This document shows positions 5,846 to 26,604 of a DNA stretch of 64,000 nt, piece by piece. The position numbers and the translations under genes are program-made. The stretch lies in assembly GCF_000021325.1 (NCBI RefSeq), contig NC_011365.1, positions 2,446,001 to 2,510,000 on the forward strand, given 5' to 3'. The stretch is from Gluconacetobacter diazotrophicus PA1 5 (GTDB lineage: Bacteria > Pseudomonadota > Alphaproteobacteria > Acetobacterales > Acetobacteraceae). Each line of letters opens with the position of its first letter. The stretch's first letter is position 1. The notes beneath the pieces are model-generated. The model worked only from the letters and a program-made list of their open reading frames with translations. It was not told the origin of the DNA and did not search any database.

Positions 5846-5846
5846 G

Positions 5847-10496: not shown

Positions 10497-10610
10497 TTTA
10501 CTGATGACCGCCAGCGTCAAGCATTGACACACCCCCCGGAGATCTGCGGTTTTTCTGTCACGTGTTGCGACACGGAATGACAGCGAGATACGGGGAATGA
10601 CGCATATGGT

Positions 10611-10649
10611 GGGGGTAGTTCTGGGGGTAGCACGTGCTTGGCGGGGGTA
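10611..10649 (+). repeat. Three GGGGGTA repeats upstream of the integrase remnant
   Basis: GGGGGTA occurs at 10611, 10623 and 10643, directly before the integrase reading frame. G-rich direct repeats of this kind are common just upstream of P4-type integrase genes and probably serve as arm-type binding sites; that role is inferred. Confidence 0.4.
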
Positions 10650-10652
10650 TCG

Positions 10653-10860
10653 TTGTTAAGCGATGCCGCGATACGGCGGGCCAAGCCGCAGGACAAGACC
10701 TATAAGCTGTCCGATTCTGGCGGCCTTTTCCTTTTGATTCAACCGAATGGCTCTCGCCTGTGGCGGCTGGGGGGCGGACGGCGCTGGTCCAGCGCCAGCA
10801 GGCGGTCATGACCCTCGGCCGGTCGTATGCGGTCGCGGGCAAGTTGGCCGTCGCTTACGA
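10653..10860 (+). pseudogene. P4-type tyrosine integrase, N-terminal remnant
   Basis: From TTG at 10653 the translation starts LLSDAAIRRAKPQDKTYKLS and continues DSGGLFLLIQPNGSRLWRL. This is the signature N-terminus of P4-like integrases (arm DNA-binding domain, DUF4102). The frame then degenerates and stops near 10807. A neighbouring frame carries QRQQAVMTLGRSYAVAG, resembling the next integrase segment (...LTLGSYPAVSL...), so at least one frameshift plus internal loss is likely. The catalytic domain is absent. It sits directly downstream of tRNA-Ser, the usual position for such an integrase. Confidence 0.75.
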
Positions 10861-10878
10861 GCATAGCGCGGCCGCTGA

Positions 10879-11544
10879 TCCCCCGCCCTGGGCGTGCGCG
10901 CCGACGGCACGAAGGAGGTCCTCGGCCTGTGGATCGAGCAGAACGAGGGCGCCAAATTCTGGCTCCGCGTCATGAACGAACTGCGCCATCGCGGCGTCGA
11001 GGATATCCTGCTGGCCGTGGTCGACGGGCTCAAGGGGTTCCCGGACGCCATCCGTGCCGTCTTCCCCGATGCCCTGGTGCAAACCTGCATCGTTCATCTG
11101 CTGCGTCATTCGCTGGATTTCGTCGCCTGGAAAGACCGTAAATCCGTGGCCACGGCATTGAAGGATATCTACCGGGCGGTGGATGCCGAAGCCGGAAAAG
11201 CGGCCCTCGCCGCCTTTGCCGAAAGCGCCTGGGGCCGGAAATACGCGGCGATCGTCCAGTCCTGGGAGCGGGCCTGGGAAGAGGTCATACCCTTCTATGC
11301 CTTTCCCGCCGAAGTCCGGAAATTGATCTACACCACCAATGCCATAGAGGCGCTGAACGCCAAACTGAGGCGGGCCGTCCGGGCCAGGGGGCATTTCCCC
11401 AATGACGACGCGGCCCTCAAGCTTCTCTTCCTGGCCTTGAACCGGGCCGAGAAAGAATGGACTATGCCGCCAAGGGAATGGTCCATGGCAAAAGCACAGT
11501 TCGCCATTCTCTTCGGTGACCGCTTCGCCCGCGCCACCGTCTGA
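10879..11544 (+). pseudogene. Truncated IS256-family transposase
   Basis: About 220 C-terminal residues of a normally roughly 400-residue transposase: LGVRADGTKEVLGLW, VVDGLKGFPDAI, a CIVHLLRH motif and the conserved end segment YTTNAIEALNAKLRRAVRARG carrying the last catalytic Glu. An in-frame TGA at 10876 precedes the first recognisable residues and the N-terminal part with the first catalytic Asp is missing, so it cannot act alone. It follows the integrase remnant directly, which suggests a deletion joined the two. Confidence 0.85.
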
Positions 11545-11590
11545 TCAACAACGTAAACAACGCCTCGCACACGAAATTCCTGACAGTCCC
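10879..11590 (+). mobile_element. IS256-family element remnant (right part only)
   Basis: The 3' portion of an IS256-family (Mutator-type) element. It holds a transposase lacking its N-terminal half and, after its stop, a tail ending ACACGAAATTCCTGACAGTCCC, which looks like an IS256-group terminal repeat. No matching left terminus is visible before 10879. It belongs to a different subgroup from the complete element at 22857-24212. Confidence 0.7.
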
Positions 11591-11599
11591 TCTCCGCCA
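11590..11599 (+). repeat. Candidate attR: second copy of the tRNA-Ser 3' end
   Basis: CTCTCCGCCA, identical to 10487-10496 and directly abutting the IS256 remnant's end. If real, the element spans about 1.1 kb today. Chance identity or a relic of IS insertion cannot be excluded. Confidence 0.35.
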
Positions 11600-11646
11600 C
11601 GCCATACAAGGCTCTTAGCCGCAATATCGGATAGATATACCTTCCG

Positions 11647-12570
11647 TCAGGCGGCTGACCGCCGCGCGGCCATCGGCCATATGAACCACAGGCCGATCAG
11701 GACGAATATCGAGGCCACCGCCACGGTCAGGCCGATAGTGCGGGAACCGATGATGCGCGTGGCCACTACGTAGCTTTCCCCGGACAGGCCGAGGGCCAGC
11801 GGCACCAGCGCGGTTGCGGTCAGGCCCCCGCCGATGCGCAGAAGCCGTTCGGTGTTCTCGCCCGCCCAGACGATGCGGTGAAGCGCGGCCGGCATGATCA
11901 GCAGGATAACGGCCATCGCCACGCACAGCAGTGCCCCGCCGTGCACCAGGCGCGACGGGGCAGGAAGTTTCTCGAACGCGGTGGTCAGGACCATCGTGAG
12001 CTGGAACCCCAGAAGCGCCTGCGCGCCCGGCAGAATGACCCGTGCCTCGGTCAGCATCTGTTCGACCCGTGCATGCAGCGGGGCGACGTCGCACAGGTTC
12101 TGCTCCGCGCGTGCCGTCTGCCGTTCCGGGACACCGGTCCGTTGTCTCATCAGCATGCCTGCTCCGTACCAGCCGGCCAGGGCCGCGGCGGTCAGGCCCG
12201 TGCCGGCCATGATCCCTGTCCGGAGGCCGCCGCCCGTTATAGGGTCGGTCGCGATCGCGACATCCAGACCGAAGGCGGCGGCGAAGGGCAGCAGCGCCGC
12301 GGCGGCCAGGCGGCCGATCAGCATATGGATGCGCCCGGTGCTGCGGCCGTGCTCCGCGATGCGGTGAAACGCGGAAGGGGCGATCAGCAGGCCCACGGTG
12401 ACCAGCATCAGGCCCAGCGCCCCGGTCGCCATGATACGCGCGGGCGGGGGCAACGTATCGAACCGCTCCTGAAAGGCCGCTTGGTATTGAAAGCCGAGAA
12501 GAATCTGTGCGCCCAGGATCAAGGTGCGCGCCTCATCCAGCGCCGTCTTCACCCGGTCGTGCAGTGCCAT
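11647..12570 (-). CDS. Membrane protein with two tandem DUF6328-like domains
   Basis: 307 residues built as an internal duplication. The first half starts ALDEARTLILGAQILLGFQY and the second MLTEARVILPGAQALLGFQL; each continues to an (A)LHRI/FHRI segment and further membrane helices. Each half has about four hydrophobic segments (roughly eight in total). DUF6328 proteins usually carry one such unit, so this is a fused tandem form. Function unknown. A good ribosome binding site (GAGGACCTGAA) precedes the ATG. It follows the decayed tRNA-Ser insertion and is the last of a run of minus-strand envelope proteins. Confidence 0.75.
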   Translation of the reverse strand: MALHDRVKTALDEARTLILGAQILLGFQYQAAFQERFDTLPPPARIMATGALGLMLVTVGLLIAPSAFHRIAEHGRSTGRIHMLIGRLAAAALLPFAAAFGLDVAIATDPITGGGLRTGIMAGTGLTAAALAGWYGAGMLMRQRTGVPERQTARAEQNLCDVAPLHARVEQMLTEARVILPGAQALLGFQLTMVLTTAFEKLPAPSRLVHGGALLCVAMAVILLIMPAALHRIVWAGENTERLLRIGGGLTATALVPLALGLSGESYVVATRIIGSRTIGLTVAVASIFVLIGLWFIWPMAARRSAA

Positions 12571-12650
12571 TTCAGGTCCTCGGCGGCCTGCCGGGTGCGA
12601 CCCTCAGGTTTCTTCACCCGGCCGGTCCCGTTTCGATCGTCGGCCGGGAT

Positions 12651-13478
12651 CTAGAAAGCGTCCCGCTGCCGACTGCCGATCGCGCCGGACACGCAGGAAA
12701 TGAGGGCCCCGACAAGCATGGAAAAGAACGTATAGAGCGCGAAGGACGAGACGGCCTTCCGGGTGACATCGGCAATATGCCTGGCCTTTGCGACGGCGTC
12801 CTTTTCGCTGGCAATCGCCTGGTCCAGCCGTTTTCCCGCGTCCTCGGGCGAAATGCCCGTGCGGGCGGCGATCATCTGAACCAGATAATCGTGATCTGCC
12901 GGCGTGACGTCGCCGGTGGCGGCGGTGGCCAGGATCCGTCCCGCCTCGGATTTCACGTCCTGGCTGGAAGAGGACGTATTCGGCTGGGACGTGCGAAACA
13001 GGGTATCAAGCATGTAGTCGCTCGGATTCGAGGCCGCATGGGCGATCGCACCGGCGCCCAGGCTGCCCGCCGTCTGCGTGGCGGTCTTTCCCACGGACCA
13101 TGCGCTGGAACCCACCAGTCCGACGATCAGCACGGCGGCGACCGCCCAGGCGACGAAACCGGCCGCCGTGTCGCGAAAGGTGACCTCGTGACGATGAACG
13201 TCGCCCAGGGCGGGGCGCAGCCGACCGGCAAGATATCCCCCGAAGAACGAGGACACCCACTGCACGACGATCAGCCAGATGGCGGTCACCACGGTAAACG
13301 TCATGCCGGACGGGTTGTTTCCGGAAACAGGCGAAACCCACGCCAGGCCCAGACCCGAGCCAAGTGATAGAAGCATGATGGCCACTGCCGTTGCGACGAT
13401 GGCCCCCGCGAGAACGGCTGCCCACGATATCCCCGCACGCGGTGATACTGCAGCCACATCATCCCTTGCGATGGGCAT
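12651..13478 (-). CDS. Four-helix membrane protein ('PhnA-like' hypothetical)
   Basis: 275 residues. Three hydrophobic segments in the N-terminal half (about residues 15-45, 60-85, 105-125) are followed by a hydrophilic Ser/Asp-rich stretch of about 100 residues and a final helix near the C-terminus (ALYTFFSMLVGALISCVSGAIG). Similar proteins in rhizobia and acetic acid bacteria carry the uninformative name PhnA-like. The ATG at 13478 is chosen because conservation-like sequence (MPIARDDVAAVSPRAGISWA) begins there; longer frames upstream cover a separate small gene. Function unknown. Confidence 0.7.
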   Translation of the reverse strand: MPIARDDVAAVSPRAGISWAAVLAGAIVATAVAIMLLSLGSGLGLAWVSPVSGNNPSGMTFTVVTAIWLIVVQWVSSFFGGYLAGRLRPALGDVHRHEVTFRDTAAGFVAWAVAAVLIVGLVGSSAWSVGKTATQTAGSLGAGAIAHAASNPSDYMLDTLFRTSQPNTSSSSQDVKSEAGRILATAATGDVTPADHDYLVQMIAARTGISPEDAGKRLDQAIASEKDAVAKARHIADVTRKAVSSFALYTFFSMLVGALISCVSGAIGSRQRDAF

Positions 13479-13489
13479 GGCGGATTCTT

Positions 13490-13561
13490 TCAATGATAAA
13501 AGAGAAGAAGAAGAATGATGAGCGGAATGGGAACGCCCAGCAGCCAGAGCAGAATTGGCAT
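13490..13561 (-). CDS. 23-residue single-helix membrane microprotein
   Basis: Encodes MPILLWLLGVPIPLIILLLL followed by FYH and a stop. AGAAGGA lies seven bases before the ATG, an ideal Shine-Dalgarno spacing. Almost every residue is hydrophobic, with a central GVPIP hinge, so it is predicted to span the membrane once. It ends 11 bases before the start of the 275-residue membrane protein and is probably co-transcribed with it. Very short proteins with this LLGVPIP..ILL pattern occur in other alphaproteobacteria as far as I recall; no function is known. Confidence 0.6.
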   Translation of the reverse strand: MPILLWLLGVPIPLIILLLLFYH

Positions 13562-13663
13562 GGTATGATCCTTCTGTGAGGATTGTGCCAACGTGCCATC
13601 TTCTTCGAAGTTCAGTGAAAAATCCTGCCATTCATGAAAAGGCCTCCGCCGGACGCCGATGCG

Positions 13664-13837
13664 TCATGGGGGGCCGTCGAAGCCATAGTTGCCCTTGGCA
13701 CTGGGGCCGACATCGCCGTACCCGTGGCCACGGAATTTCTGCGTGCCGCGATCACCGTAATTGGGCCCGCAGGCCGCCAGCAGAAGCATGCCGGCCAGGG
13801 CCAGCACCGAAACCGTCTTCCCTGTATTGGTCGTCAT
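13664..13837 (-). CDS. Small lipoprotein, glycine-rich tail
   Basis: 57 residues with a lipoprotein signal (VLALAGMLLLAAC, lipobox LAAC) and a short hydrophilic mature part (GPNYGDRGTQKFRGHGYGDVG...) rich in Gly. AAAGGA lies at the right distance from the ATG at 13837, so this start is preferred over ATG codons further upstream (13843, 13885). The +2 residue is Gly, so outer-membrane sorting is likely. Function unknown; it lies in a run of small envelope proteins on the same strand. Confidence 0.65.
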   Translation of the reverse strand: MTTNTGKTVSVLALAGMLLLAACGPNYGDRGTQKFRGHGYGDVGPSAKGNYGFDGPP

Positions 13838-13931
13838 CGACATATCCTTTCGCACCGGCGGTGCGCCCACCACAGAGGCGGGCACATCCGGGCCGGGCGC
13901 GGTCTGGTTTCGAGGGTTTTTGACCCGGCCG

Positions 13932-14231
13932 TTATTGCGGGCTGTTATCGGGTTTCAGGATCGGGGGTGTCAGCATCCGATCCGCCTCATGCTCGCCCCG
14001 GGACACGTTCAGGGATGAAGGCGACGGGGGTGTTTTCGTGTGTGGAAGGTTGTCCCCCTGCTTCGAGCCAGCGGGCGGCGTGCCGGGTTTGTGCGTGTGG
14101 GTCCTGGAAGGCTGGGAGGATGGGCTTTGGTTATTCGTGCTGGACGGGGAGGTCGGGGCGGGCTGACCCCACGCCGCACCGCTACCCGCGACCAGGGCAA
14201 CTGAAAGGGGGACGAACAGAAACGCACGCAT
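13932..14231 (-). CDS. Small secreted Pro/Ser/Thr-rich protein
   Basis: 99 residues. A signal peptide (MRAFLFVPLSVALVAGSGAAWG) leads into a low-complexity chain dominated by Pro, Ser, Thr, Asn and His with no predicted fold. It is likely periplasmic or extracellular; no family recognised. Its composition resembles the 107-residue secreted protein at 40187. Confidence 0.55.
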   Translation of the reverse strand: MRAFLFVPLSVALVAGSGAAWGQPAPTSPSSTNNQSPSSQPSRTHTHKPGTPPAGSKQGDNLPHTKTPPSPSSLNVSRGEHEADRMLTPPILKPDNSPQ

Positions 14232-14409
14232 GGCTGTTCTCTTTACCTGTGTTCGAACAGAGGGTCAGCCGATGTTAACTCCCCGCGGCGCGATGGGTTC
14301 ACGTTTCCGACAACATTTTCGTGATTTCATGCGTCCATCGTGCGAAAACTGCGCGATATGGACAGGATATTCTCAAATAATATCCTCGCCGGAGTTGCGC
14401 GCGGCGGTG

Positions 14410-14589
14410 TCACATCTGACCCGTGCCGCGGAACAGCAGGAACAGCGCAACGATGATCAGGATGATCGGCAACAGGCCCAGCCCGTTGAAGCGCCCGCCC
14501 TGCCCGCCACCATACCAGCCCGAGCGAATACCGTAGCCGCCGCCCCCGATGGCGAAGATGATGAGGATGATCACGAGAAGGGTCAGCAT
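14410..14589 (-). CDS. 59-residue membrane protein with glycine-rich loop
   Basis: MLTLLVIILIIFAIGGGGYG starts the protein; a Gly/Tyr-rich linker (GIRSGWYGGGQGG) and a second hydrophobic helix (LGLLPIILIIVALFLLFRG) follow. GGAG lies seven bases before the ATG at 14589. This helix/Gly-linker/helix pattern is seen in unnamed small proteins of alphaproteobacteria. Function unknown. It is the first member of the minus-strand small-protein series after the PfpI gene. Confidence 0.6.
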   Translation of the reverse strand: MLTLLVIILIIFAIGGGGYGIRSGWYGGGQGGRFNGLGLLPIILIIVALFLLFRGTGQM

Positions 14590-14658
14590 CGGACAACTCC
14601 GCAGGAGGGAATCCCGTTAACACTTTATGGTTCGGATTGGATGCGCCGGCGGCGCCGG

Positions 14659-15219
14659 TTACAGCGCGTGCGCCGCCGGCGTGTCCGCGAACAGCGTGAT
14701 CATGGCCGAACAGAACGCCTTCAGGTCACCGGGATTGCGTGACGTGACCAGCGTTCCGTCCGTGACGACCGTCTCGTTCACCCATTGGGCGCCCGCATTG
14801 GTCAGGTCGGTCCGCAGGGACGGCCATGACGTCATGCGGTGGCCCGCCACGCCGCCTGCGTCGATCAGCGTCCATGGTCCGTGGCATATGGCGGCCATGG
14901 GCTTGCCGGACTCCACGAATTCCCGCACGAAGCGCACGGATTCCGCATCGATGCGCAGATGATCCGGATTCGTGGTGCCCCCCGGCAGGACCAGCCCGTC
15001 GAATTCCGACGCCGCCGCCTGGGCGACCGGGCGATCGACGTCATAGTGGCCAGCCGGATTGACATCCTCCTTCATGGCCTGGATCCGTCCGGTCTTCGGC
15101 GACACCAGGACGGTACGCGCCCCCGCATCGCGCAGCGCCTCGACCGGTTGCGTCAGTTCGACTTCTTCGACGCCGTCCGTGGCCAGTACGGCAATCGTTC
15201 TGCCATCCAACATTCCCAT
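14659..15219 (-). CDS. DJ-1/PfpI family protein (class I glutamine amidotransferase-like)
   Basis: 186 residues, the usual size. The nucleophile elbow reads MAAICHGPW with the conserved Cys, and the upstream motif DGLVLPGGTTNPDHLR fits the PfpI/YhbO-type branch. Members have been described as proteases, glyoxalases III or deglycases that limit glyoxal damage; which activity applies here is open. A Shine-Dalgarno sequence (GGAAGGA) precedes the start. It is divergent from the MFS gene at 15549 and heads a run of small stress-like envelope genes. Confidence 0.88.
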   Translation of the reverse strand: MGMLDGRTIAVLATDGVEEVELTQPVEALRDAGARTVLVSPKTGRIQAMKEDVNPAGHYDVDRPVAQAAASEFDGLVLPGGTTNPDHLRIDAESVRFVREFVESGKPMAAICHGPWTLIDAGGVAGHRMTSWPSLRTDLTNAGAQWVNETVVTDGTLVTSRNPGDLKAFCSAMITLFADTPAAHAL

Positions 15220-15548
15220 TGTCGTGGTCCTTCCTTGATCGGTTCGGTGGGACTTTCACGCCCCGCCCGGCCTGACTGGTGTCAGCGCCTCTCTCGGGGG
15301 CCATGTTCCCTCACATCGGTGTGAGAGCGGCACCGATGAAGAGGCGAGGGCCCGCACCGTTCCGAAGAGTACCCCGCACATTCCGGGATAGTGCCGATCA
15401 TCCTGGCCTGGCCGTTCCGTAGGCCGCGGATCCCCCTCGGGACCGTTCCCCTGGCTGCGCCGTCTGTAATGATGCGATCAAAGCCGGACAAGGTCCTTCT
15501 CTTCCTGTCGCTCGTCTCCGAAAAAACAAGAAAATACCGGAGGACGTC
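15220..15548. other. Divergent intergenic region, 329 bases
   Basis: Lies between the divergent PfpI-like and MFS genes and should hold both promoters. I see no convincing gene, tRNA or strong repeat. The only clear element is the Shine-Dalgarno sequence CGGAGGACGTC just before the MFS start. Confidence 0.5.
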
Positions 15549-16874
15549 ATGCTCGCAAGGCAACGCTGGCTGATCTGCAGTCTTCTTTTTGCCGCCACGA
15601 CCATCAACTATGTGGATCGTCAGGTCCTGAGCCTGCTGAAGCCGCTTCTGGAGAAAACATTCGACTGGACCGAGAAGGATTACAGTTATCTGGTGATTGC
15701 CTTCCAGGCCTGCTACATGCTCGGGTTCCTGTCTTTCGGCAAACTGGTCGACAGGATCGGGACACGTCTGGGCTATGCGGTCTGCATGGTGGTGTGGAGC
15801 GTGGCCTCGATCGGGCATGCCCTGGTCGGCGGAACGGTCAGCTTCGCGGCGGTACGCGGGCTTCTGGGATTTGGTGAATCCGGAAATTTTCCCTCGGCGC
15901 TGAAGGCGATTTCGGAATGGTTTCCCGCACGCGAGCGGACCCTGGCGGTGGGTATCGTGACGGCGGGGACCAGCATCGGGGCGATCATGGCGCCGGCGAC
16001 GGTGCCCTGGCTGGCGGTGACGTGGGGCTGGAAGGCGACGTTCATTATCACCGGCCTGTCCGGGTTCGTCTGGCTGGCGGTCTGGCTTTGTCTCTATCGC
16101 ATTCCCGAGGAGAAGGCGTCCCTCTCGCCGGAGGAACTGCGTTATATCCGCCAGGATACGAAACCGGACGCAATGCCGGTATTCGCGGGGCGGTGGATCG
16201 ACCTGCTCCGGATGAAGGTGACGTGGGCGTTCGCAATCGGAAAGTTCATGACGGACCCGATCTGGTTCTTCATCCTGTTCTGGCTGCCGTCCTATTTTTC
16301 CGACCGGTATCACCTCAACCTGCAGCATCTGGGGCTGCCGCTGATGGCCGTTTACCTGTCGACCTCGGTGGGCAGCGTCGGGGGGGGATGGCTGTCGTCC
16401 TTTCTGGTCCACAAGGGCTGGTCGGTGGCCCACGCCCGGCGGGCGGTCATGCTGCTGACGGCCCTGCTGGTCGTGCCGCTGGCATTTTCCGCGCAGGTCG
16501 GGGCGATGTGGCTGATGATCGGGCTCCTGAGCCTGGCCGCGGCGGCGCATCAGGGATGGTCGGCGAATATCTATTCCCTGCCGGCGGACCATTTCCCCAA
16601 GGAGATCATTGCCTCGGTCCAGGGCATCGGCGGCATGGCGGGGTCGATCGGCGGGATGCTGTTCCCGCTGGGGGTCGGTGTCCTGCTCGATCATTACCGG
16701 CACCTGCACAGGATCGAGGAAGGCTATGACATCCTGTTCGTCGTCTGCGGCGGTGCGTATCTGACGGCCTGGTGCATCATCCAGGTCCTGACCCGTGATC
16801 CGCCCAGGGGCCGGGTTCTGCCCGAACCCGGCAAGGGCCAGTCCCCGCCGTCCCCTTATGTCGGCGCGATCTGA
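15549..16874 (+). CDS. MFS transporter, anion:cation symporter (hexuronate/sugar-acid) type
   Basis: 441 residues with twelve hydrophobic segments. The N-terminal signature INYVDRQVLSLLKPLLEKTF and loop KLVDRIGTRLGY are typical of the ACS family (ExuT/GudP-like), which imports sugar acids and related organic anions. CGGAGG is well placed before the ATG. Its end overlaps the end of the convergent alcohol dehydrogenase gene by 19 bases. The substrate is inferred only from family: a sugar acid or carboxylate. Confidence 0.88.
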   Translation: MLARQRWLICSLLFAATTINYVDRQVLSLLKPLLEKTFDWTEKDYSYLVIAFQACYMLGFLSFGKLVDRIGTRLGYAVCMVVWSVASIGHALVGGTVSFAAVRGLLGFGESGNFPSALKAISEWFPARERTLAVGIVTAGTSIGAIMAPATVPWLAVTWGWKATFIITGLSGFVWLAVWLCLYRIPEEKASLSPEELRYIRQDTKPDAMPVFAGRWIDLLRMKVTWAFAIGKFMTDPIWFFILFWLPSYFSDRYHLNLQHLGLPLMAVYLSTSVGSVGGGWLSSFLVHKGWSVAHARRAVMLLTALLVVPLAFSAQVGAMWLMIGLLSLAAAAHQGWSANIYSLPADHFPKEIIASVQGIGGMAGSIGGMLFPLGVGVLLDHYRHLHRIEEGYDILFVVCGGAYLTAWCIIQVLTRDPPRGRVLPEPGKGQSPPSPYVGAI

Positions 16875-17887
16875 ATCTTGAGCACCTCCGGCCGGTCCCT
16901 GATCGTGTCGAAGGTCTGCTGGATATCGGCCAGCGGCACGACGGTGCCGATGAAGGGCGCCACGCGGAACCGGTCATGTACCAGAAGCGTCAGCGCGTCA
17001 TGGACATCCTGCCCCATGCCGGCCACAGATCCGGCCATCGACGTTTCCTTCAGGATCATGTCGACGATGCCCACGGGCACGGTGGCGTCCGGCCCGGTCA
17101 GGCCGAACGCCGCCACATGGCCGCCCGGGCGGATCAGGTCGAACGCACGCGCATACAGTGCCGGCACGCCCACGCTTTCGATCACGATATCGGCGCCGCG
17201 GCCGCCGGTATGGGCGCGCACGATGTCCTGCATCCGGTCGGGATCGGTCACCACCACGTCGGCCCCGGCCTCCGCCGCCAGCCGCGCGCGCTCGGGCGAC
17301 AGTTCGACGACGATGATCGGCGCGGCCCCGGCCAGCCGCATCATCTGGACGTGCAGGTTGCCGATCGGCCCGGCCCCCAGGATCACGACCGACTGCCCGA
17401 AGGTCGCGCCCGCCTTGCGCGCGGCGCGCACGACACAGGAAACGGGTTCGGTCAGGGCCAGGATTTCAGCCGCCACGCCGGCCGGCGCCGGGACGATCTG
17501 CCGCGCCGGAATCGCGACATATTCGGCGAAGGCGCCGTCACGATGGATGCCGACCTGCCACGCCGCCCGGCAATTGAGCACCTCGTTGCGCCGGCAGTAG
17601 AAGCAGTGGCCGCATCCCACATTGATGTCGGCCACGACCCGTTGTCCCGGCTCCAGGCCGGTGACGCGCTCGCCCATCCGCGCGATCGTCCCCGTGAATT
17701 CGTGACCGGGGACCAGCGGCAGCCGGTCGGCCGCGTAGTGGCCTGCGAAAATATGCAGGTCGGTGCCGCATATACCGCAGCGATCGACCTTGACCAGCAC
17801 GTCGTCGGGGCCGACCGGGGGAAGCAGCACGGCCCTGACTTCGAACCTGTGGGGGGCGACCAGGACGGCCGCGCGCATCGTATCCAT
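16856..17887 (-). CDS. Zinc-dependent medium-chain alcohol/polyol dehydrogenase
   Basis: About 343 residues. Catalytic-zinc motif CGICGTDLHIFAGHY, structural-zinc cysteines in CGHCFYCRRNEVLNC, and the NAD-binding VVILGAGPIGNLHVQ place it among sorbitol/threonine-dehydrogenase-like MDR enzymes that oxidise a secondary alcohol with NAD(P)+. The ATG at 17887 follows AAGGATATC; a GTG at 17902 directly after the upstream stop is an alternative. It follows the truncated sugar ABC permease gene with no gap and was probably in one operon with it, suggesting oxidation of the imported sugar or polyol. Confidence 0.9.
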   Translation of the reverse strand: MDTMRAAVLVAPHRFEVRAVLLPPVGPDDVLVKVDRCGICGTDLHIFAGHYAADRLPLVPGHEFTGTIARMGERVTGLEPGQRVVADINVGCGHCFYCRRNEVLNCRAAWQVGIHRDGAFAEYVAIPARQIVPAPAGVAAEILALTEPVSCVVRAARKAGATFGQSVVILGAGPIGNLHVQMMRLAGAAPIIVVELSPERARLAAEAGADVVVTDPDRMQDIVRAHTGGRGADIVIESVGVPALYARAFDLIRPGGHVAAFGLTGPDATVPVGIVDMILKETSMAGSVAGMGQDVHDALTLLVHDRFRVAPFIGTVVPLADIQQTFDTIRDRPEVLKIQIAPT

Positions 17888-17902
17888 GATATCCTTCGTC
17901 AC

Positions 17903-18523
17903 CTATTTGACGACGCGCATCTTCGACCGGTCGATGGTGGTCGCGATGGCGGTGATCAGCACAAGACCGAAGAAAATCTGCTGTCCCGTCGCGGGAATGT
18001 TCAGATAGAGCATGCTGGCGCGTACCACCGCCACGATCAGCGCGCCGATCAGCGTGTTCAGCACGCCGCCCACGCCCTCGGTCAGTGGCGTGCCGCCCAC
18101 CAGCACGGCCACGATCGCCGGCAGCAGAAACCCCTCCGCCAGGGTCGGCGATCCGCCCGACAGCCGGACCGAGAACATCACCCCGGCGATGGCGGCGAAC
18201 ATGCCGGACAGCGCGAAGGCCAGGATCTTGTAGCGGCCGACGCGGATGCCCGACGCGACCGCCACCGGTTCGGCCGTGCCGATCGCCTTGAAGATACGCC
18301 CCGCCGTCATCCGCGTCTGGACGAACCAGGCGATGGCGCCAGGGACGAGGGCGACCAGCAATTCGTGCGGCACGCCCGCGCTGCGCCCCACCATCCAGCC
18401 GAAGGCATGGCGGCGCATTTCGGCATCCATGTGCAGCGCCCGCTGGCCCGAGGCGAACTGGGCCACCGACAGGGCGATGCCGCCCACCGCCAGTGTCGAA
18501 ATGAAGGACGGCACCAGCGCCAC
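17903..18523 (-). pseudogene. Sugar ABC transporter permease (RbsC-like), N-terminus lost
   Basis: About 206 residues of a normally roughly 320-residue RbsC/XylH-type inner-membrane permease. Conserved segments remain: PSFISTLAVGGIA, FKAIGTAEPVAVASGIRVGRYK (the EAA-like loop), LSGMFAAIAGVMFSVRL and TEGVGGVLNTLIGALIV. Everything upstream of PSFISTL, at least two helices, is missing because the sequence changes into an aldehyde dehydrogenase on the other strand at about 18510-18530. No ATPase or binding-protein gene is nearby. Almost certainly non-functional. Confidence 0.85.
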
Positions 18524-19442
18524 GACGCTGATTCTGGCGGATATCCTGCAGCAGGCGGGCCTGCCGGCCGGGGTCTATAACGTCGTGACCGGCGCGGGCC
18601 GCGTGATCGGCCAGGCGCTGGCCGAACATCCGGATGTGGACATGCTGTCCTTCACGGGCTCGACCGCCGTCGGACGTACCTGCGTGCAGGCGTCGGCGGC
18701 CAGCAACCTGAAGAAGCTGGGGCTGGAACTGGGGGGCAAGAACCCCATCGTCGTCTTTGCCGATTCCAACCTGGACGATGCGGCGGGCGGCGCGGCCTTC
18801 GGCATCAGCTTCAACACCGGGCAGTGCTGCGTCTCCTCCAGTCGCCTGATCGTCGAACGGTCGGTCGCCCCGGAATTCGAACGCATCCTGGCCCGGAAGA
18901 TGGCGCAGATCCGGGTCGGCGACCCGCTCGATCCGCGCACGCAGGTCGGTGCCATCACGACCGCCGCGCAGAACGATACCATCCTGGGCTATATCGAAAA
19001 AGGCAAGCAGGAAGGGGCGAAGATCGTGTACGGCGGGGGGCCGCTCGATCTGGGACGCGGGCAGTTCATCCAGCCGACGCTGTTCTCGGGCGTCGCGCCG
19101 TCCATGTCGATCGCCCGCGATGAAATTTTCGGGCCCGTCCTGTCATCCTTCCATTTCGACACCATCGAGGAAGCTATCACGCTGGCCAACGACACGGTCT
19201 ACGGGCTGGCCGCCTCGGTCTGGACCAGCAACCTGAACAAGGCCCTGACGGTCACGCGCCGCGTGCGGGCCGGCCGGTTCTGGGTCAACACCATCATGGC
19301 GGGCGGCCCGGAAACGCCGGCCGGCGGCTTCAAGCAGTCGGGCTGGGGGCGCGAGACCGGCGTCCTGGGGGTCGAGGAATATACGCAGGTCAAGGCCGTC
19401 CACGTGGATATCGGCCCGCGCGCGCACTGGATCGAATCATGA
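18510..19442 (+). pseudogene. Aldehyde dehydrogenase, N-terminal third missing
   Basis: About 310 residues of a normally 480-500-residue NAD(P)-dependent aldehyde dehydrogenase. Present: AGLPAGVYNVVTGAG, FTGSTAVGR, the general-base segment LGLELGGKNPIVVF, the catalytic Cys region FNTGQCCVSSSRL, DEIFGPVL, and the C-terminal GGFKQSGWGRE. Missing: roughly 170-180 residues including the first part of the cofactor fold and the oxyanion Asn. The frame is open further upstream only because it runs antisense through the permease gene. Its TGA overlaps the next gene's ATG (ATGA), so it once headed an operon with the GMC oxidoreductase. Confidence 0.85.
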
Positions 19443-21034
19443 CCGAAAGCTGTGACTATCTCGTCATCGGCGGGGGGTCGGCGGGCTGCGTCATGGCGGC
19501 GCTGCTGTCGGAAAATCCGGCGGCGCGCGTATGCATGATCGAGGCCGGCGGCCCCGATACCAATCCCCTGATCCACATCCCGATCGGCTTCGCCAAGATG
19601 ACGACGGGACCGCTGACCTGGGGGCTGGCCACTGCGCCGCAGAAGCACGCCAACAATCGTGAAATCCCTTATGTGCAGGCCAAGGTCCTGGGCGGTGGGT
19701 CCTCGATCAATGCCGAAGTCTTCACGCGCGGCGTTCCGTCGGATTATGACCGCTGGGTGGAGGAAGGCGCCGAGGGCTGGGCCTTCAAGGACATCCAGAA
19801 ATACCTGATCCGGTCCGAGGGCAATACGGCGCTGTCGGGCGAATGGCATGGCACGAACGGCCCGCTGGGCGTGTCCAACCCGACCTCGCCCAATCCGCTC
19901 AGCCTCGCCTTCGTGCAGAGCTGCCAGGAATACGGCATTCCGTACAATCCCGACTTCAACGGCCCCAGGCAGGAAGGGGCCGGATTCTACCAGTTGACGG
20001 TCCGCAACAGCCGGCGCTGCTCGGCGGCGGTCGGCTATCTGCGTCCGGCGCGCAAGCGCGCCAACCTGCATGTCATCACCAGGGCGCAGGTCCTGCGCAT
20101 CGCCTTCGAGGGCAAGCGCGCGAAGGGCGTCGTCTATGCGGTGGATGGCCAGGTCCGGGAAGTGCGGGCGGAACAGGAAGTCATCGTCACCTCCGGCGCC
20201 ATCGGCACGCCGAAACTGCTGATGCTGTCGGGCATCGGGCCGGCCGCGCACCTGCAGGCCCATGACGTTCCGGTGGTGCATGACCTGCCGGGCGTCGGCC
20301 AGAACCTGCAGGACCATTTCGGCGTGGATATCGTCGCCGAACTGAAAGATCACGAAAGCTACAACCGGTACAACAAATATCACTGGGCGGCGTGGGCCGG
20401 CCTGCAATACGCGCTGTTCCGCTCGGGTCCGCTGGCGTCCAACGTCGTGGAAGGCGGCGCGTTCTGGTATGCGGACCGCAACGCGCGCACGCCCGACCTG
20501 CAATTCCACTTCCTGGCCGGCGCGGGGGCGGAAGCCGGGGTGGTCTCGGTGCCGAAGGGCGCGTCCGGCATTACCCTCAACAGCTACACGCTGCGCCCGA
20601 AATCGCGTGGCACGGTCACGCTGCGGTCGTCCGACCCCCGGGACAACCCGATCGTCGATCCGAACTTCCTGGCCGACCCCGACGACCTGCGCATCTCGGC
20701 CGAAGGCGTGAAGATCAGCGTGGAGATGTTCCGCCAACCGTCGCTGCAGAAATACATCAAGTCGATCAACCTGTTCGACGAGATCCGGCCGACGGCCCGC
20801 ACCTACGAGGACTACACCCGGCAGAACGGCCGGACATCCTATCACCCCACCTGCACCTGCAAGATGGGCAAGGACCCGATGGCGGTGGTCGATTCGCAGC
20901 TTCGCATCCACGGGCTGGACGGCATCCGCATCTGCGACAGCTCGGTCATGCCGTCGCTGATCGGATCGAATACCAACGCGCCGACGATCATGATCGCCGA
21001 GCGCGCCGCCGACCTGATCCGGGGCAATGCCTAG
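19439..21034 (+). CDS. GMC-family FAD oxidoreductase (choline/alcohol dehydrogenase-like)
   Basis: 531 residues, full length. An FAD-binding Rossmann motif (DYLVIGGGSAGCVMAALLSE), the GMC signature GGGSSINAEVFTRG, a second signature SGAIGTPKLLMLSGIGP, and the C-terminal catalytic region YHPTCTCKMG...GSNTNAPTIMIAERAA with the active-site His and Asn are all present. GMC enzymes oxidise alcohols to aldehydes, which fits its overlap (ATGA) with an aldehyde dehydrogenase. The CoA-transferase gene follows 55 bases later. Loss of the aldehyde dehydrogenase N-terminus probably also removed the native promoter, so expression is uncertain. Confidence 0.9.
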   Translation: MTESCDYLVIGGGSAGCVMAALLSENPAARVCMIEAGGPDTNPLIHIPIGFAKMTTGPLTWGLATAPQKHANNREIPYVQAKVLGGGSSINAEVFTRGVPSDYDRWVEEGAEGWAFKDIQKYLIRSEGNTALSGEWHGTNGPLGVSNPTSPNPLSLAFVQSCQEYGIPYNPDFNGPRQEGAGFYQLTVRNSRRCSAAVGYLRPARKRANLHVITRAQVLRIAFEGKRAKGVVYAVDGQVREVRAEQEVIVTSGAIGTPKLLMLSGIGPAAHLQAHDVPVVHDLPGVGQNLQDHFGVDIVAELKDHESYNRYNKYHWAAWAGLQYALFRSGPLASNVVEGGAFWYADRNARTPDLQFHFLAGAGAEAGVVSVPKGASGITLNSYTLRPKSRGTVTLRSSDPRDNPIVDPNFLADPDDLRISAEGVKISVEMFRQPSLQKYIKSINLFDEIRPTARTYEDYTRQNGRTSYHPTCTCKMGKDPMAVVDSQLRIHGLDGIRICDSSVMPSLIGSNTNAPTIMIAERAADLIRGNA

Positions 21035-21089
21035 GCTCGGTCGGGTCCGGTAAAGTATCTAACCAGATAGTTTTCAAGAGAGACGCACC

Positions 21090-22685
21090 ATGTCGAAAGT
21101 CAAGCAGGCCGCGGACGTCGCAACGCTGATCAGGGACGGCGCCGTGATCGCGGTCAATTCGTCCAGCGGGCTCTGCTGCCCGGATGCGGTGCTGGCCGCG
21201 ATCGGCGCGCAGTACCGCGATCATGGCACGCCCCGGAACGTCACCATGATCCATCCCATCGCGGCGGGCGACATGTTCGGCACCAAGGGCGTCGATCACC
21301 TGGCCCAGCCCGGCCTGATCGCGACCATCATCGGCGGGTCCTATCCGTCCGGTCCGTCCAGCGCGGAACCGCCGGTGATCCGCCAGATGATCGCCCGCAA
21401 CGAGGTCGCGGCCTATAACGTGCCCAGCGGCATCATCTTCGACCTGCTGCGCGAGGGCGCGGCCAGGCGTCCCGGCGTGATGACGCAGGTCGGCATGGAT
21501 ACGTTCGTCGATCCGGACCAGGAGGGCTGCGCGATGAACGACGCGGCGCGCGAGAAGCCGATCGTGCGCCGTATTGCCTTCGAAGGCGAGGACTGGCTGT
21601 ATTTCCAGGCCATCCATCCCGACGTCGCGGTGATCCGTGCCAGCACCGCCGACGAACGCGGCAACCTGACCTTTGAAAACGAGGGCGCCTATCTGGGTGC
21701 GATGGAACTGGCCCTTGCGGCGCACAACAATGGCGGCATGGTGATCGCGCAGGTCAAGCGCGTGGCCCAGTCCGGCACGCTCAAGCCGCACGACGTGCGT
21801 GTGCCCGGCATCCTGGTCGATTACGTGATCGAGGCGCCGGACCAGTTGCAGACCACGGCCACCCCGTACGATCCGGCGATTTCCGGCGAAATCTTCCGCC
21901 CGCTCGACAGTTTCGAACTGCCGCCCTTCGACGTCGCGAAGGTCATGGCGCGCCGCGTCGCCTGCGAACTGCAAACCGGGTGGGCGGTGAATATCGGCTT
22001 CGGCATCTGCGCCGTCGTTCCGCGCGTGCTGCTGGAACAGGGCCGCCACGGCGACGTGACATGGGTCATCGAACAGGGCGCCGTGGGCGGCGTGCCCCTG
22101 CTGGACTTCAAGTTCGGATGCTCGTCCAATGCCGAGGCCTTCGTCGCCTCGCCGCACCAGTTCACCTATTTCCAGGCCGGGGGGTTCGATGTCTCGCTGC
22201 TGTCCTTCCTGCAGATCGATCGCCATGGCTCGGTCAATGTCTCGAAACTCTCGGCCCGGCCGCACGTGACGGCGGGGTCGGGCGGCTTCGTCGACATCAC
22301 CTCGCGCGCACGCCGCATCATCTTCACCGGCTATTTCAACGCCGGGGCCAGACTGAGTATCGCCGACGGCAAGGTCTCCATCGACCGCGAGGGAAAGATC
22401 GCGAAGATCGTCGAAAAGCTGGAGCAGGTCTCCTTCTCCGGAAAACGCGCCATCGCGCAGGGGCAGGAGGTGATGTACGTCACCGAACGCTGCGTGATGA
22501 AGCTGACGCCGGACGGGCTGATGGTCACGGAAATCGCGCCCGGCATCGATCTGCAGACGCAGATCCTCGACCAGGCGGAAATCCCGCTGCTGGTCGCGCC
22601 CGACCTGCGCGTGATGGACGCGGCGCTGTTCCGGCCCGACGGCAAGGCGCCGGTGTCCGAACCCGCCAAGCAGGCCGCCGCCTGA
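21090..22685 (+). CDS. Acetate/propionate CoA-transferase (YdiF/Pct family)
   Basis: 531 residues carrying both halves of a class I CoA-transferase in one chain: the N-terminal GAVIAVNSSSGLCCPDAVLAA region and a C-terminal half with GFGICAVVPRVLLEQG and VIEQGAVGGVPL, whose Glu should form the glutamyl-CoA intermediate. Such enzymes move CoA between short acyl-CoAs and carboxylates. It lies downstream of the GMC oxidoreductase in the same direction, consistent with an alcohol to aldehyde to acid to acyl-CoA route. A hairpin follows the stop codon. Confidence 0.88.
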   Translation: MSKVKQAADVATLIRDGAVIAVNSSSGLCCPDAVLAAIGAQYRDHGTPRNVTMIHPIAAGDMFGTKGVDHLAQPGLIATIIGGSYPSGPSSAEPPVIRQMIARNEVAAYNVPSGIIFDLLREGAARRPGVMTQVGMDTFVDPDQEGCAMNDAAREKPIVRRIAFEGEDWLYFQAIHPDVAVIRASTADERGNLTFENEGAYLGAMELALAAHNNGGMVIAQVKRVAQSGTLKPHDVRVPGILVDYVIEAPDQLQTTATPYDPAISGEIFRPLDSFELPPFDVAKVMARRVACELQTGWAVNIGFGICAVVPRVLLEQGRHGDVTWVIEQGAVGGVPLLDFKFGCSSNAEAFVASPHQFTYFQAGGFDVSLLSFLQIDRHGSVNVSKLSARPHVTAGSGGFVDITSRARRIIFTGYFNAGARLSIADGKVSIDREGKIAKIVEKLEQVSFSGKRAIAQGQEVMYVTERCVMKLTPDGLMVTEIAPGIDLQTQILDQAEIPLLVAPDLRVMDAALFRPDGKAPVSEPAKQAAA

Positions 22686-22706
22686 ACCCGAGGACCGCCC
22701 CCGCCG

Positions 22707-22725
22707 GATGCCCGGCCGGGGCATC
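22707..22725 (+). terminator. Hairpin after the CoA-transferase gene
   Basis: GATGCCC and GGGCATC form a perfect 7-bp stem with a 5-base loop, 21 bases after the stop. No T-run follows, so it may be a weak terminator or an mRNA 3' stabiliser. Confidence 0.35.
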
Positions 22726-22848
22726 TGGCGCGGAGCTATATAAATATCCTGTTACTTCATGAAAAATGATAGGTCTTATGCATCCAGGGTCGGACAACCC
22801 GCGATACTGTGGGCGGAATTTTTTGCTCCCGAAAGGAATGCATGGTGC

Positions 22849-22856
22849 TGATGGAA
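22849..22856 (+). repeat. Left target-site duplication of the IS element
   Basis: TGATGGAA here and at 24213-24220 flank the IS exactly; 8 bp is the usual duplication size for the IS256 family. Rejoined, the flanks restore a TetR gene start (ATGGTGCTGATGGAAAGC). Confidence 0.92.
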
Positions 22857-24212
22857 GGCTGTGTCCCGAGGTGTGGTGTAGGAGCGAGTCTGGCTGCTGA
22901 GGCGGCCATCGCCGGTCTTTGATAGGGTTCGGGTGCGAACTGAACCTGAAGGACCTGACGATGACCGACGAGAAGATGGCGCTGCTGGAGCTTGTGGAGC
23001 AAGCGTCGGATGGCGATTTTGTTCGTGAGATGCTGGCGTTCGCTGCCGATCGGATGATGGAGATGGAGGTTGAGGCCGGGACCGGTGCGCCGCTTGGCGC
23101 GCGTTCGGCCTCCCGCTCGACCCAACGCAACGGCTACCGCGCTCGGAACTGGGACACCCGGGCGGGCACGGTGGAGCTTGCGATCCCGAAGCTACGCAAG
23201 GGCAGCTATTTCCCGACCTTCCTGGAGCCGCGGAAAACGGCGGAAAAGGCACTGCTGGCGGTCATCCAGGAAGCCTACGTCCAGGGTATTTCCACGCGAT
23301 CGGTCGATGATCTCGTCCGCGCGATGGGCGCCGGGGGCATCTCCAAAAGCCAGGTCAGTCGTCTGGTGGGCGAGATCGACGAACGGGTCAACAGCTTCCT
23401 GTCTCGGCCGATCGAGGGCGAATGGCCGTATCTCTGGATCGACGCCACCTATCTGAAACTGCGCCAGGGTGGCCGGATTGTCTCGATTGCCGTGATAATC
23501 GCCGTGGGCGTAAATACGGACGGCCGTCGTGAGGTGCTCGGCGTGGCGACGGGACCGTCCGAAGCGGAAGCGTTCTGGACGGATTTCCTGCGCTCCCTGG
23601 CCGATCGCGGCCTGCGCGGCGTGAAGTTGGTGGTGGCCGACGCGCATGCCGGACTGCGGGCCGCGGCCGGTCGCGTGTTCAATGCGACCCTGCAACGCTG
23701 CCGGGTGCACTGGCTGCGCAATGCGCTCGCCCATGCCCATGCGAAGCAGCGTCCTGCCATCTCGGCCCTGTTGCGCACGATCTTCACGCAGGAAACCGCC
23801 GAGGATGCGTCACGCCAATGGCGGCACGTCACCGACAAGCTGCGCGAAGGCTTTCCGAAGCTGGCCGAATTCATGAAGCGGACGGAAGTGGACGTGCTTG
23901 CCTACATGGGCTTTCCTCGGGAGCATTGGACGCAAATCTCGTCGACGAACCCGATCGAGCGGGTGAACAGGGAGATCAAGCGTCGCTGCGACGTCATCGG
24001 CATTTTCCCCAACGATGCCGCCATTATCCGCCTCGTCGGCGCGCTGATGCTCGAACAGAACGACGAGTGGGCGGTCTGCCGACGTTACATGACGCTGGAA
24101 GGACTGGCCGCCATCAGCCATAATCCCACAATCAGCCTGCCCGCCGTGGCCGCCTGATAACCTCGAACCCTTCGAGGAACGGTGCTCCTACACCACACCT
24201 CGGGACACAGCC
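22857..24212 (+). mobile_element. Complete IS256-family insertion sequence, 1356 bp
   Basis: Bounded by perfect 29-bp inverted repeats (22857-22885 and 24184-24212, beginning GGCTGTGTCCCGAGGTGTGG) and by an 8-bp direct target duplication. It contains one intact transposase gene. The perfect repeats and the intact duplication indicate a recent, possibly still mobile copy. It is inserted in the 5' end of a TetR-type regulator gene. Confidence 0.95.
22961..24157 (+). CDS. IS256-family transposase
   Basis: 398 residues, full length for this Mutator-like DDE family. Motifs: [15 protein letters not shown] with the first catalytic Asp, [14 protein letters not shown] with the second, the Cys/His segment [13 protein letters not shown], and [20 protein letters not shown] with the final Glu. 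ATG at 22961 is chosen for the AAGGA eight bases upstream; an in-frame ATG at 22919 would add 14 residues. No frameshift or internal stop, so probably active. Confidence 0.95.
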
Positions 24213-24220
24213 TGATGGAA
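24213..24220 (+). repeat. Right target-site duplication of the IS element
   Basis: Second TGATGGAA copy. It contains the ATG (24215) used here as the start of the interrupted TetR gene. Confidence 0.92.
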
Positions 24221-24886
24221 AGCAGGAAAAAGCGGGGCAATCCAGACGGGCAGGCCGATCCGACCGGTCCCCGCAAGCGAGACGCCGAAGCAACCCAGAA
24301 GCGCATTCTGTCATCGGCCAGGCGTGAATTCGCAACCAGCGGCCTGGCCGGCGCGCGCGTCGATATCATCGCGGAGAAAGCCGAAGCCAAAAAAAGGATG
24401 ATCTATCATTATTTCGGGAACAAGGAGGCGCTGTTCACCCGGATCCTGGAAGATGCCTATATCGATCTCTACCAGGCCGAGCAGAAACTGGATCTCGACC
24501 ATCTCGATCCCAGGTCGGCGCTGGATCATTTCGTCAGGTTCACGTGGAACTATTACCTGAAGAATCCCGATTTCATCACCCTCGTCAACAGCGAGAACCT
24601 GCACTGCGGCGTGCATCTGCAGGATTCGGCCGTCCTGCGCAGCGTCAGCCAGAACCGCCTGCGCATGCTGGAAAACCTCCTGAAACGCGGCGAGAAGGAC
24701 GGTGTCTTCCGTCCCGGAATCGATGCCATGCAGTTGCATATTTCCATCGCCGCGGTCGGATATTATTATATAACCAACCGATATACCGGAATCATTATTT
24801 TCAAGCGCGATTTCATGTCCAAGGACATGCTGGACAAGCGCGTCGATTTCAATGTCGAGAGTATCTTGCGCATCGTCCAGGCATGA
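24215..24886 (+). CDS. TetR-family regulator, 5' end interrupted by an IS
   Basis: 223 residues from ATG 24215. The helix-turn-helix region reads RILSSARREFATSGLAGARV and continues DIIAEKAEAKKRMIYHYFGNKEALF; the ligand domain is helical and unrecognised. Before the IS insertion the gene started at ATG 22842 (MVLMESRKK...), preceded by GAAAGGAATGC. That start now reads 26 codons into the IS and stops. The remaining frame keeps an ATG only inside the target duplication, without its Shine-Dalgarno sequence. A GTG at 24182 inside the IS, shortly after GAGGA, could give a 234-residue fusion. Expression is doubtful; it may have controlled the upstream catabolic genes. Confidence 0.8.
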   Translation: MESRKKRGNPDGQADPTGPRKRDAEATQKRILSSARREFATSGLAGARVDIIAEKAEAKKRMIYHYFGNKEALFTRILEDAYIDLYQAEQKLDLDHLDPRSALDHFVRFTWNYYLKNPDFITLVNSENLHCGVHLQDSAVLRSVSQNRLRMLENLLKRGEKDGVFRPGIDAMQLHISIAAVGYYYITNRYTGIIIFKRDFMSKDMLDKRVDFNVESILRIVQA

Positions 24887-24891: not shown

Positions 24892-26604
24892 CTATTGTCC
24901 CTGCCCGGGCATGCAATCAAGATACGCCTCGCTGGCATAGCGTCGCATCATGCGGTGACTGGTAAAGATCGACCCGCATTTCGAGACCGCCCCGGCCATC
25001 ACGCGCGCCCAGCCGGCCCGGTCATCGTGGAACAGCGGCAGGATCACGTGCTCCAGCTTGTCCAGCATGGCGTGTCCATGCTCTGACGGGGGCATGTCGG
25101 GCGTGCCGATCGCCCATCCCGTAACGCCTTCCATGCATCCCTCGACCCACCAGCCATCCAGCACGCTCAGGCTGGGAACGCCGTTCAGCGCCGCCTTCAT
25201 GCCGCTGGTTCCCGATGCCTCCATCGGGGGCAGGGGCGTATTCACCCAGAGGTCGGCGCCGGCGACCAGGTTCCTGGCCAGCGAAAAATCATAGTCCGGA
25301 AGAAAGACGATCGGCACCTTGCCTTTCAGAAGGCGCGCCCGGTCTATGATCCGGGCGATCAGCCGCTTGCCGTCCCGGTCATGGGGATGGGTCTTGCCGG
25401 CGAAGACGATCTGGAACGGCCGGTGCGCCGCGATGCGCGCCAGTCGCTGCGGATCGTCCAGGATCAGGGTCGCGCGCTTGTAGGCCGTCATGCGCCGGGC
25501 GAAGCCCAGGGTCGGAAGCGACGGGTCGAGGGACTGGCCCGTCAGGTCGCGGACCCGGTCCAGCAACGCCGCCTTCGCGGCATCGTGGGCGGTGAACCAG
25601 TCCTGCCTGTCCAGTGTATCGACGGAGCAGAGGAATTCGGGTTCGTGCCGCCAGCGCGGGCATGTCCGGTCGTACAGGTCGGCGAACGCCGGATGGACCC
25701 ATGTTTCGGGATGGACGCCGTTGGTGATCGACCGGATCGCATAGCCGGGGAACATGCGCTGGGTGGTCTCGCCATGGCGTTCCGCCACCCCGTTGACATA
25801 CCCGCTCAGGTTGAGCGCCAGCCGCGTCATGTTCAGCCTGTCCGTGCCGGCAAGCTGCTGCAGCACCGGCATCTCGACGAAATCGCCCAGCATCCGGCGT
25901 ACCAGGTCGTAGGAAAACTGGTCGTGCCCGGCTTCCACCGGCGTATGAGTAGTGAAGACGCAACGTTCCAGAACCCGTTCCCGGTCATAGGGGAACATGT
26001 CCCCCGCGACATGGCTGGGGGGCCGGGAATGCCGGCGCAGCAGGGCGAGGGGCAGCAGGGCGCCGTGCCCCTCGTTCATATGATAGGTCCGGATGGAAAA
26101 CCCCAGCGCGGTCAGCATCTTCTCGCCGCCGATTCCCAGGACGATCTCCTGGCACAGGCGCCAGGCATCGTCGCCACCGTACAGCCGGTCCGTGATGGGG
26201 CGGTCCGCGCGGTCGTTTTCCGCCAGCCGGGTGTCGAGCAGCAGGATGGGAATCGCGCCGCCAGGCCGTTCCAGCACATACAGCCAGGGACGAATCCAGA
26301 CCTAGCGCCCGTCGATGGTGACGGCGATCATCGCCGACAGCGGCTCGGCCATTCCGGCCGGGTCCCAGGGCTGCGGGTGATCGTGCTGCACGCCCTTCGC
26401 GTCGACCACCTGGTGCAGATATCCGGCGCGCGAGGCCAGTGTCACGAACACCATGGGCAGACCCAGGTCGGCGGCCGACCGGGCGGCATCGCCGGCCAGG
26501 ATGCCCAGGCCGCCGCTGTAACTCGGAACCGCCGGATCGAAAGCGATCTCCATCGTGAAATAGGCGACCGACACCCTGCCTGTGAAACGACGGACCCGAT
26601 CCAT
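24892..26604 (-). pseudogene. Alpha-glucan (glycogen) phosphorylase broken by one in-frame TAG
   Basis: Two open segments in the same frame, 26604-26305 and 26301-24892, are separated only by TAG (26304-26302) after codon 100. Together they form a full phosphorylase of the short alpha-glucan phosphorylase type: FTMEIAFDPAVPSYSGGLGILAGD near the N-terminus, RLCQEIVLGIGGEKML, YHMNEGHGALLPLALL, FAGKTHPHD and the PLP/phosphate region SGTSGMKAALNGVPSLSVLDGWWVEGC. It would release glucose-1-phosphate from glucans. The stop lies within GRxVWIRPW and could come from CAG or GAG by one substitution. No other damage is visible, so the lesion is recent, a sequencing error, or read through. Confidence 0.85.

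What the first reader, a model, noticed from the sequence alone, without database searches (positions are those of the whole stretch)
18495..18535. Rearrangement junction joining two decapitated genes
At about 18510-18530 a sugar ABC permease (minus strand) and an aldehyde dehydrogenase (plus strand) meet head to head, each without its N-terminus. The same bases read VALVPSFI on one strand and GTSATTL on the other. A deletion or inversion with short homology in GGCACCAGCGCCACGACG would explain this. It removed the start of both genes and probably the binding-protein and ATPase genes.
Basis: partly seen in the sequence, partly recalled or inferred. Interest (0 to 1): 0.65.

Follow-up and report, generated by a model that had tools for sequence, protein, structure and literature searches.

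The report
A 12-kb deletion scar
The chromosome of this sugarcane-dwelling bacterium has lost a 12,000-base block of sugar-uptake and breakdown genes that its closest relatives still carry, leaving two gene stumps facing away from each other; it is a real but ordinary gene loss.

Summary
At window 18513-18515 the 5'-truncated end of a minus-strand sugar ABC permease gene abuts the 5'-truncated end of a plus-strand aldehyde dehydrogenase (ALDH) gene. A second group's assembly of the same strain has the identical junction, so an assembly error is very unlikely. Six of twelve other-species Gluconacetobacter genomes hold both genes whole, same strands and order, with 10.2-16.6 kb between the breakpoints (12,006 and 12,220 bp in the two closest). 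It is a simple deletion, not an inversion. In relatives the block carries the ATPase, a second permease, the binding protein, an aldo/keto reductase, ETF alpha and beta, a TIM-barrel isomerase-like protein, DUF993, an SDR, an acyl-CoA dehydrogenase-like protein, both missing gene starts and the divergent intergenic region. Only 3 bp (ACC) are shared at the breakpoints; random breakpoints share as much in about 6% of draws. The genome encodes two Ku proteins and LigD, 17-22 kb from the junction, so end joining is plausible but not shown. Both stumps remain open and conserved, which suggests a recent loss. Ordinary gene loss; low interest.

The parts
18513..18515 (.). Deletion junction; 3-bp microhomology ACC shared by both ends of the lost segment in the two closest relatives
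17903..18515 (-). 3' remnant of a sugar ABC permease gene (last 203 codons kept, no stop or frameshift; about 135 codons lost if the johannae start is residue 99 of its open frame)
18516..19442 (+). 3' remnant of an aldehyde dehydrogenase gene (last 308 codons kept, no stop or frameshift; about 190 of 499 lost)
16856..17902 (-). Zinc alcohol dehydrogenase gene downstream of the permease remnant, colinear in six relatives; cut off from the start of its presumed former operon
19439..21034 (+). GMC oxidoreductase gene whose ATG overlaps the ALDH stop codon; cut off from the region upstream of ALDH
21090..22685 (+). CoA-transferase gene, next on the same strand
22857..24212 (+). Insertion sequence with a Mutator-family transposase (IS256-type by recalled label), perfect 30-bp inverted ends and 8-bp target duplication TGATGGAA, absent at this place in azotocaptans and johannae: a second lesion of the same locus, not at the deletion junction
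24182..24886 (+). TetR-family regulator open frame; the insertion sequence lies within what are the first codons of the johannae gene

Best explanation
In the lineage leading to G. diazotrophicus PAl 5 a single deletion of about 12 kb removed the middle of a divergently transcribed sugar-uptake and catabolism locus, from inside the permease gene to inside the aldehyde dehydrogenase gene. SHOWN: the intact order in relatives, the ends, the gene content of the block in relatives, presence of the junction in two assemblies of the strain. INFERRED: that the two ends were joined by illegitimate end joining at ACC (Ku/LigD-dependent or not), that the remaining genes of both arms lost their promoter and the pathway is dead, and that the event is recent because both stumps are still open and well conserved.
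For: All six congeners that hold the locus have full-length permease and ALDH genes (ALDH 490-499 of 499 residues matched, no stop; permease 436 of 436, the one stop, in azotocaptans, lies at residue 35, upstream of the presumed start at 99), same strands and order, 10,221-16,641 bp between breakpoints (12,006 in johannae, 12,220 in azotocaptans). Of eleven johannae proteins of the block searched by tblastn against 19 kb of the RioGene assembly around the junction, nine had no match, the second permease had a 36% cross-hit to the permease stump, and the cut permease matched only by residues 234-436. DNA searches of the whole JGI genome with both halves of the johannae block found no relocated orthologue; the best matches are a 75% binding-protein gene and a 67% ETF pair elsewhere. 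The junction is the same in the second assembly, with no difference from window 11142 to 23871. No stop codon in either stump; dN/dS to the two closest species is 0.04-0.05 (permease) and 0.10-0.11 (ALDH). Two Ku genes and LigD are in the genome.
Against: Both assemblies are of one strain from one source, so it is not shown that the species as a whole carries the deletion. Three shared base pairs are weak evidence for any joining mechanism (chance 0.065). The test for relaxed constraint on the stumps was inconclusive: ALDH and GMC show more amino-acid change on the G. diazotrophicus branch with three of four outgroups, the permease stump shows none, and one of ten other frames, an intact conserved gene, shows the same effect.
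Confidence: 0.95

Rival explanations
1. Assembly artefact: two unlinked or collapsed contigs were joined.
For: The two PAl 5 assemblies are known to differ widely in arrangement (PMC3035290, text parts 1 and 2 of 3 read).
Against: Both assemblies have the same junction to the base; the block was not found anywhere in the JGI genome; the two sides are neighbours in relatives, which a random false join would not produce; the paper reports that the JGI assembly agrees well with an optical map.
Confidence: 0.02
2. Inversion or translocation rather than deletion: the missing gene starts lie elsewhere in the genome.
Against: Flanks are colinear with relatives on both sides, and no orthologue of the lost block was found in the JGI genome. 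The RioGene genome was searched with the block only over 19 kb around the junction.
Confidence: 0.01
3. The short genes are functional derived proteins (a half permease and a short ALDH) and the arrangement is under selection.
For: Both stumps are open, with low dN/dS to relatives; the permease stump has a GTG in frame at 18523 and the ALDH frame runs on upstream to an ATG at 18246.
Against: Each lacks a large part of its family profile (whole in johannae); the partner ATPase and binding protein are gone from the locus; low dN/dS is what a recent deletion leaves behind; no promoter-like site was found before the ALDH stump (a consensus scan that does not cover all promoter types).
Confidence: 0.03

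Closest known systems
Illegitimate (microhomology or end-joining) deletion of a chromosomal catabolic gene block in bacteria (kind recalled, not from a call)
   Same: Loss of one contiguous block, no inserted bases, 3-bp overlap at the ends, gene stumps on both sides
   Different: Nothing essential; the joining mechanism is not demonstrated
The intact locus of Gluconacetobacter azotocaptans, johannae, takamatsuzukensis and liquefaciens, and the related locus of Paracoccus versutus pTAV3
   Same: Same kinds of genes on both sides and, with the block: ATPase, two permeases, binding protein, aldo/keto reductase, ETF, TIM barrel, DUF993 (in Paracoccus a dihydrodipicolinate-synthase-family gene by annotation, not tested as DUF993), SDR, acyl-CoA dehydrogenase-like
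   Different: In PAl 5 the central block is missing; in Paracoccus the genes are ordered differently

Membership tests
Simple chromosomal deletion | Relatives keep both truncated genes whole, same order and orientation, with the lost block between | tested here: met
   six of six congeners that hold the locus; the other six of twelve other-species genomes gave only weak or short matches to the 1,541-base query (one of them, G012, is 87% complete in 1310 contigs)
Simple chromosomal deletion | Lost block not elsewhere in the genome | tested here: met
   (JGI genome): best matches a 75% binding-protein gene and a 67% ETF pair, both below the 84-88% seen for orthologues at this locus
Microhomology-mediated or NHEJ deletion | Short shared sequence or none at the ends, no long repeat | tested here: inconclusive
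   3 bp ACC; P(at least 3) = 0.065 and 0.063 for random breakpoint pairs in johannae and azotocaptans; longest exact repeat within 60 bp of both ends 9 bp, not at the breakpoints
Microhomology-mediated or NHEJ deletion | Ku and LigD encoded in the genome | tested here: met
   Ku matches at window 35854-36396 (+; only) and 39516-40013 (-), LigD 36664-39234 (+)
Microhomology-mediated or NHEJ deletion | The join depends on Ku/LigD | not testable with these tools
   needs a knock-out experiment
Insertion-sequence-mediated deletion | Insertion sequence or its end at the junction | tested here: not met
   the junction is a direct join of two chromosomal sequences; the one insertion sequence identified nearby starts 4.3 kb away at 22857
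Homologous-recombination deletion between repeats | Long direct repeats at the ends in the ancestor | tested here: not met
   no exact repeat over 9 bp within 60 bp of both ends in the two closest relatives; the ancestor itself cannot be seen

The most novel reading that the evidence does not exclude
The loss of this sugar locus is adaptive in the sugarcane endophyte: a Ku-LigD-Ku cassette 17-22 kb away made the deletion, an insertion sequence hit the adjacent regulator gene, and an orphan binding protein plus GMC oxidoreductase (the pair was found in none of the twelve other-species Gluconacetobacter genomes searched) took over part of its role.
Probability: 0.05. Interest if true: 0.35.

Novelty: new member of a known kind. 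Interest (0 to 1): 0.15.

Why it matters
It explains two short open frames in a widely used nitrogen-fixing endophyte as gene stumps rather than whole proteins, predicts that PAl 5 cannot use the still unidentified substrate of this locus, and offers a PCR marker to see whether wild G. diazotrophicus strains share the loss. It is otherwise a routine case of gene loss.

Tried and rejected
Relaxed-selection test: lineage-specific non-synonymous versus synonymous changes on the G. diazotrophicus branch against the azotocaptans+johannae branch. With takamatsuzukensis as outgroup the ALDH stump gave 11:14 against 2:22 (p 0.008) and GMC 34:34 against 13:54 (p 0.0003); similar with liquefaciens and G002; weaker with tumulisoli (ALDH p 0.77, GMC p 0.04). 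Permease stump, ADH, CoA-transferase and MFS gene were not significant with any outgroup used. Pooled: both stumps p 0.07; ADH+GMC+CoA-transferase p 0.04. Of eleven further frames in the window tried as controls or additions ten gave counts (TetR had no outgroup match); one of these ten, a conserved intact frame at 8460-10277, gave 12:30 against 2:41 (p 0.003), the other nine gave p 0.07 or more. Several of the ten are opposite-strand frames of one another and so cannot all be coding. The effect is therefore not specific to the stumps, nor general; dropped as evidence.

The 18-bp string as a homology: rejected, only 3 bp are shared. Phage origin of the region: no match to window 17000-20500 in 50,697 phage records in the near mode. 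Promoter and terminator scan of 17800-19500: one promoter-like site before the ADH gene (0.1 expected), one terminator-like site at the junction (0.8 expected); not used. A moved copy of the lost binding-protein gene: the 75% copy at G000:C1 2635768-2636907 is nearer to the takamatsuzukensis, G002 and liquefaciens genes (83-84%) than to johannae or azotocaptans (75-76%), so it is probably a paralogue or acquired copy, not the lost gene. Substrate of the pathway: no paper in the library names DUF993; not identified. Print: searches (listings and abstract starts seen) and term searches within PMC2765452 and PMC9368920 (passages only) gave no description of this deletion; supplements were not read. 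(end joining and microhomology) was seen as a listing only and is not relied on. A Pfam scan of the frame 35523-36657 gave nothing; it is not the frame of the first Ku match.

Full report
What was checked. The window is G000:C1:2446001-2510000 of a genome of 3,914,947 bp in two contigs. Contig C1 is 3,887,492 bp and the same-species genome G004 has a contig of 3,944,163 bp; these are the lengths printed for the JGI (CP001189) and RioGene (AM889285) chromosomes of Gluconacetobacter diazotrophicus PAl 5 in PMC3035290 (text parts 1 and 2 of 3 read). Both groups worked from ATCC 49037 according to that paper.

The junction. The minus-strand permease remnant covers only profile positions 100-268 of BPD_transp_2, the plus-strand ALDH remnant only 163-461 of Aldedh. 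A whole-genome search of the 14 Gluconacetobacter genomes held (the own one, one of the same species, twelve of other species) with window 17900-19440 gave a full-length 100% match in G000 and G004, and two separate same-strand matches (query up to 616, and from 613 or 614) in G002, G003, G006, G007, G009 and G011; the other six (G001, G005, G008, G010, G012, G013) gave only weak or short matches. Alignment of the junction with the six puts the break after window 18515. ACC at 18513-18515 is common to both sides in johannae (G006), azotocaptans (G003) and G002; four bases are shared in takamatsuzukensis (G009), none in liquefaciens (G007) and tumulisoli (G011). The segment between the breakpoints is 12,006 (johannae), 12,220 (azotocaptans), 12,174 (takamatsuzukensis), 16,641 (G002), 15,206 (liquefaciens) and 10,221 bp (tumulisoli). 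Random breakpoint pairs in the two closest relatives share at least 3 bp in 6.5% and 6.3% of draws. In the six relatives the ALDH gene matches over 490-499 of 499 residues without a stop, and the permease over its whole length (the one stop seen, in azotocaptans, lies upstream of the presumed start).

Not an assembly error. In the 14,805 bp over which the two PAl 5 assemblies align without a gap they differ at 16 positions: 15 at 10319-11141 and one at 23872; none around the junction. PMC3035290 reports that the JGI assembly agrees well with an optical map while RioGene is rearranged in large blocks; the RioGene junction at 1.537 Mb is outside the inversions and translocations tabulated there, though the paper also counts unaligned RioGene regions for which the parts read give no positions.

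What was lost. In johannae (L104) the block holds, on the permease strand, the rest of the permease, an ATPase (5141-6646), a second permease (6653-7639), a binding protein (7705-8937), an aldo/keto reductase (8962-9978), ETF alpha and beta (10121-11811), a xylose-isomerase-like TIM barrel (11828-12697), DUF993 (12678-13841), an SDR (13844-14611) and an acyl-CoA dehydrogenase-like protein (14608-15750), then the divergent intergenic region and the start of ALDH. Order and content are the same in azotocaptans, takamatsuzukensis, G002 and liquefaciens (the last two have extra DNA between the aldo/keto reductase and ETF genes); tumulisoli has no match to the ETF and acyl-CoA dehydrogenase-like proteins in this stretch. 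No NCBIfam transporter model reaches its cut-off, so the substrate is unnamed. By annotated names, a similar gene set, ordered otherwise, lies on Paracoccus versutus pTAV3 and on a plasmid labelled Roseateles. Searches of the JGI genome with both halves of the block found no relocated copy.

Consequences, inferred. What remains on the left (permease stump, zinc ADH) and right (ALDH stump, GMC oxidoreductase, CoA-transferase) has lost the shared divergent region in which promoters would be expected. The locus carries a second lesion: an insertion sequence at 22857-24212 with a Mutator-family transposase, 30-bp perfect inverted ends and an 8-bp duplication, which sits within the first codons of a TetR-family regulator gene; azotocaptans and johannae lack it there. 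Both stumps remain open and close to relatives (permease 95%, ALDH 91% amino-acid identity to azotocaptans and johannae), which fits a recent event; the test for relaxed constraint was inconclusive.

Mechanism. No insertion sequence lies at the junction, and no exact repeat longer than 9 bp lies within 60 bp of both ends in the two closest relatives. The genome encodes two Ku proteins and a LigD with ligase, phosphoesterase and primase-polymerase domains, inside this window at 35.9-40.1 kb, so bacterial non-homologous end joining is likely to be available; that it made this join is an inference from its presence alone.

Verdict. Ordinary gene loss, seen in one strain; interest low.

Noticed in passing
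window 22857-24212: Insertion sequence with Mutator-family transposase, perfect 30-bp ends and 8-bp target duplication inside the first codons of a TetR gene; five near-full-length copies in the JGI genome, this one included. The RioGene assembly departs from the JGI assembly inside this element at window 23908, so it is one of the points where the two PAl 5 assemblies are joined differently.
   Followed up: partly
window 35854-40142: Two Ku genes flanking a LigD gene (Ku + / LigD + / Ku -), an end-joining gene group with two Ku genes.
   Followed up: partly
L161 6287-8907 (G000:C1 2634287-2636907): Pair of a GMC oxidoreductase and a sugar-binding protein; no ABC ATPase or permease among the ten frames of the neighbourhood scanned, the pair included. 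In the genus only the binding-protein half matches well, and then the binding protein of the locus deleted here, 75-84%.
   Followed up: partly
window 10319-11141: Fifteen of the sixteen differences between the JGI and RioGene assemblies over 14.8 kb fall in these 0.8 kb, fourteen of them in 10947-11141, as if one assembly took a repeat copy.
   Followed up: no
window 24895-26277: Open frame with only part of the carbohydrate phosphorylase profile (319-583 of 713).
   Followed up: no
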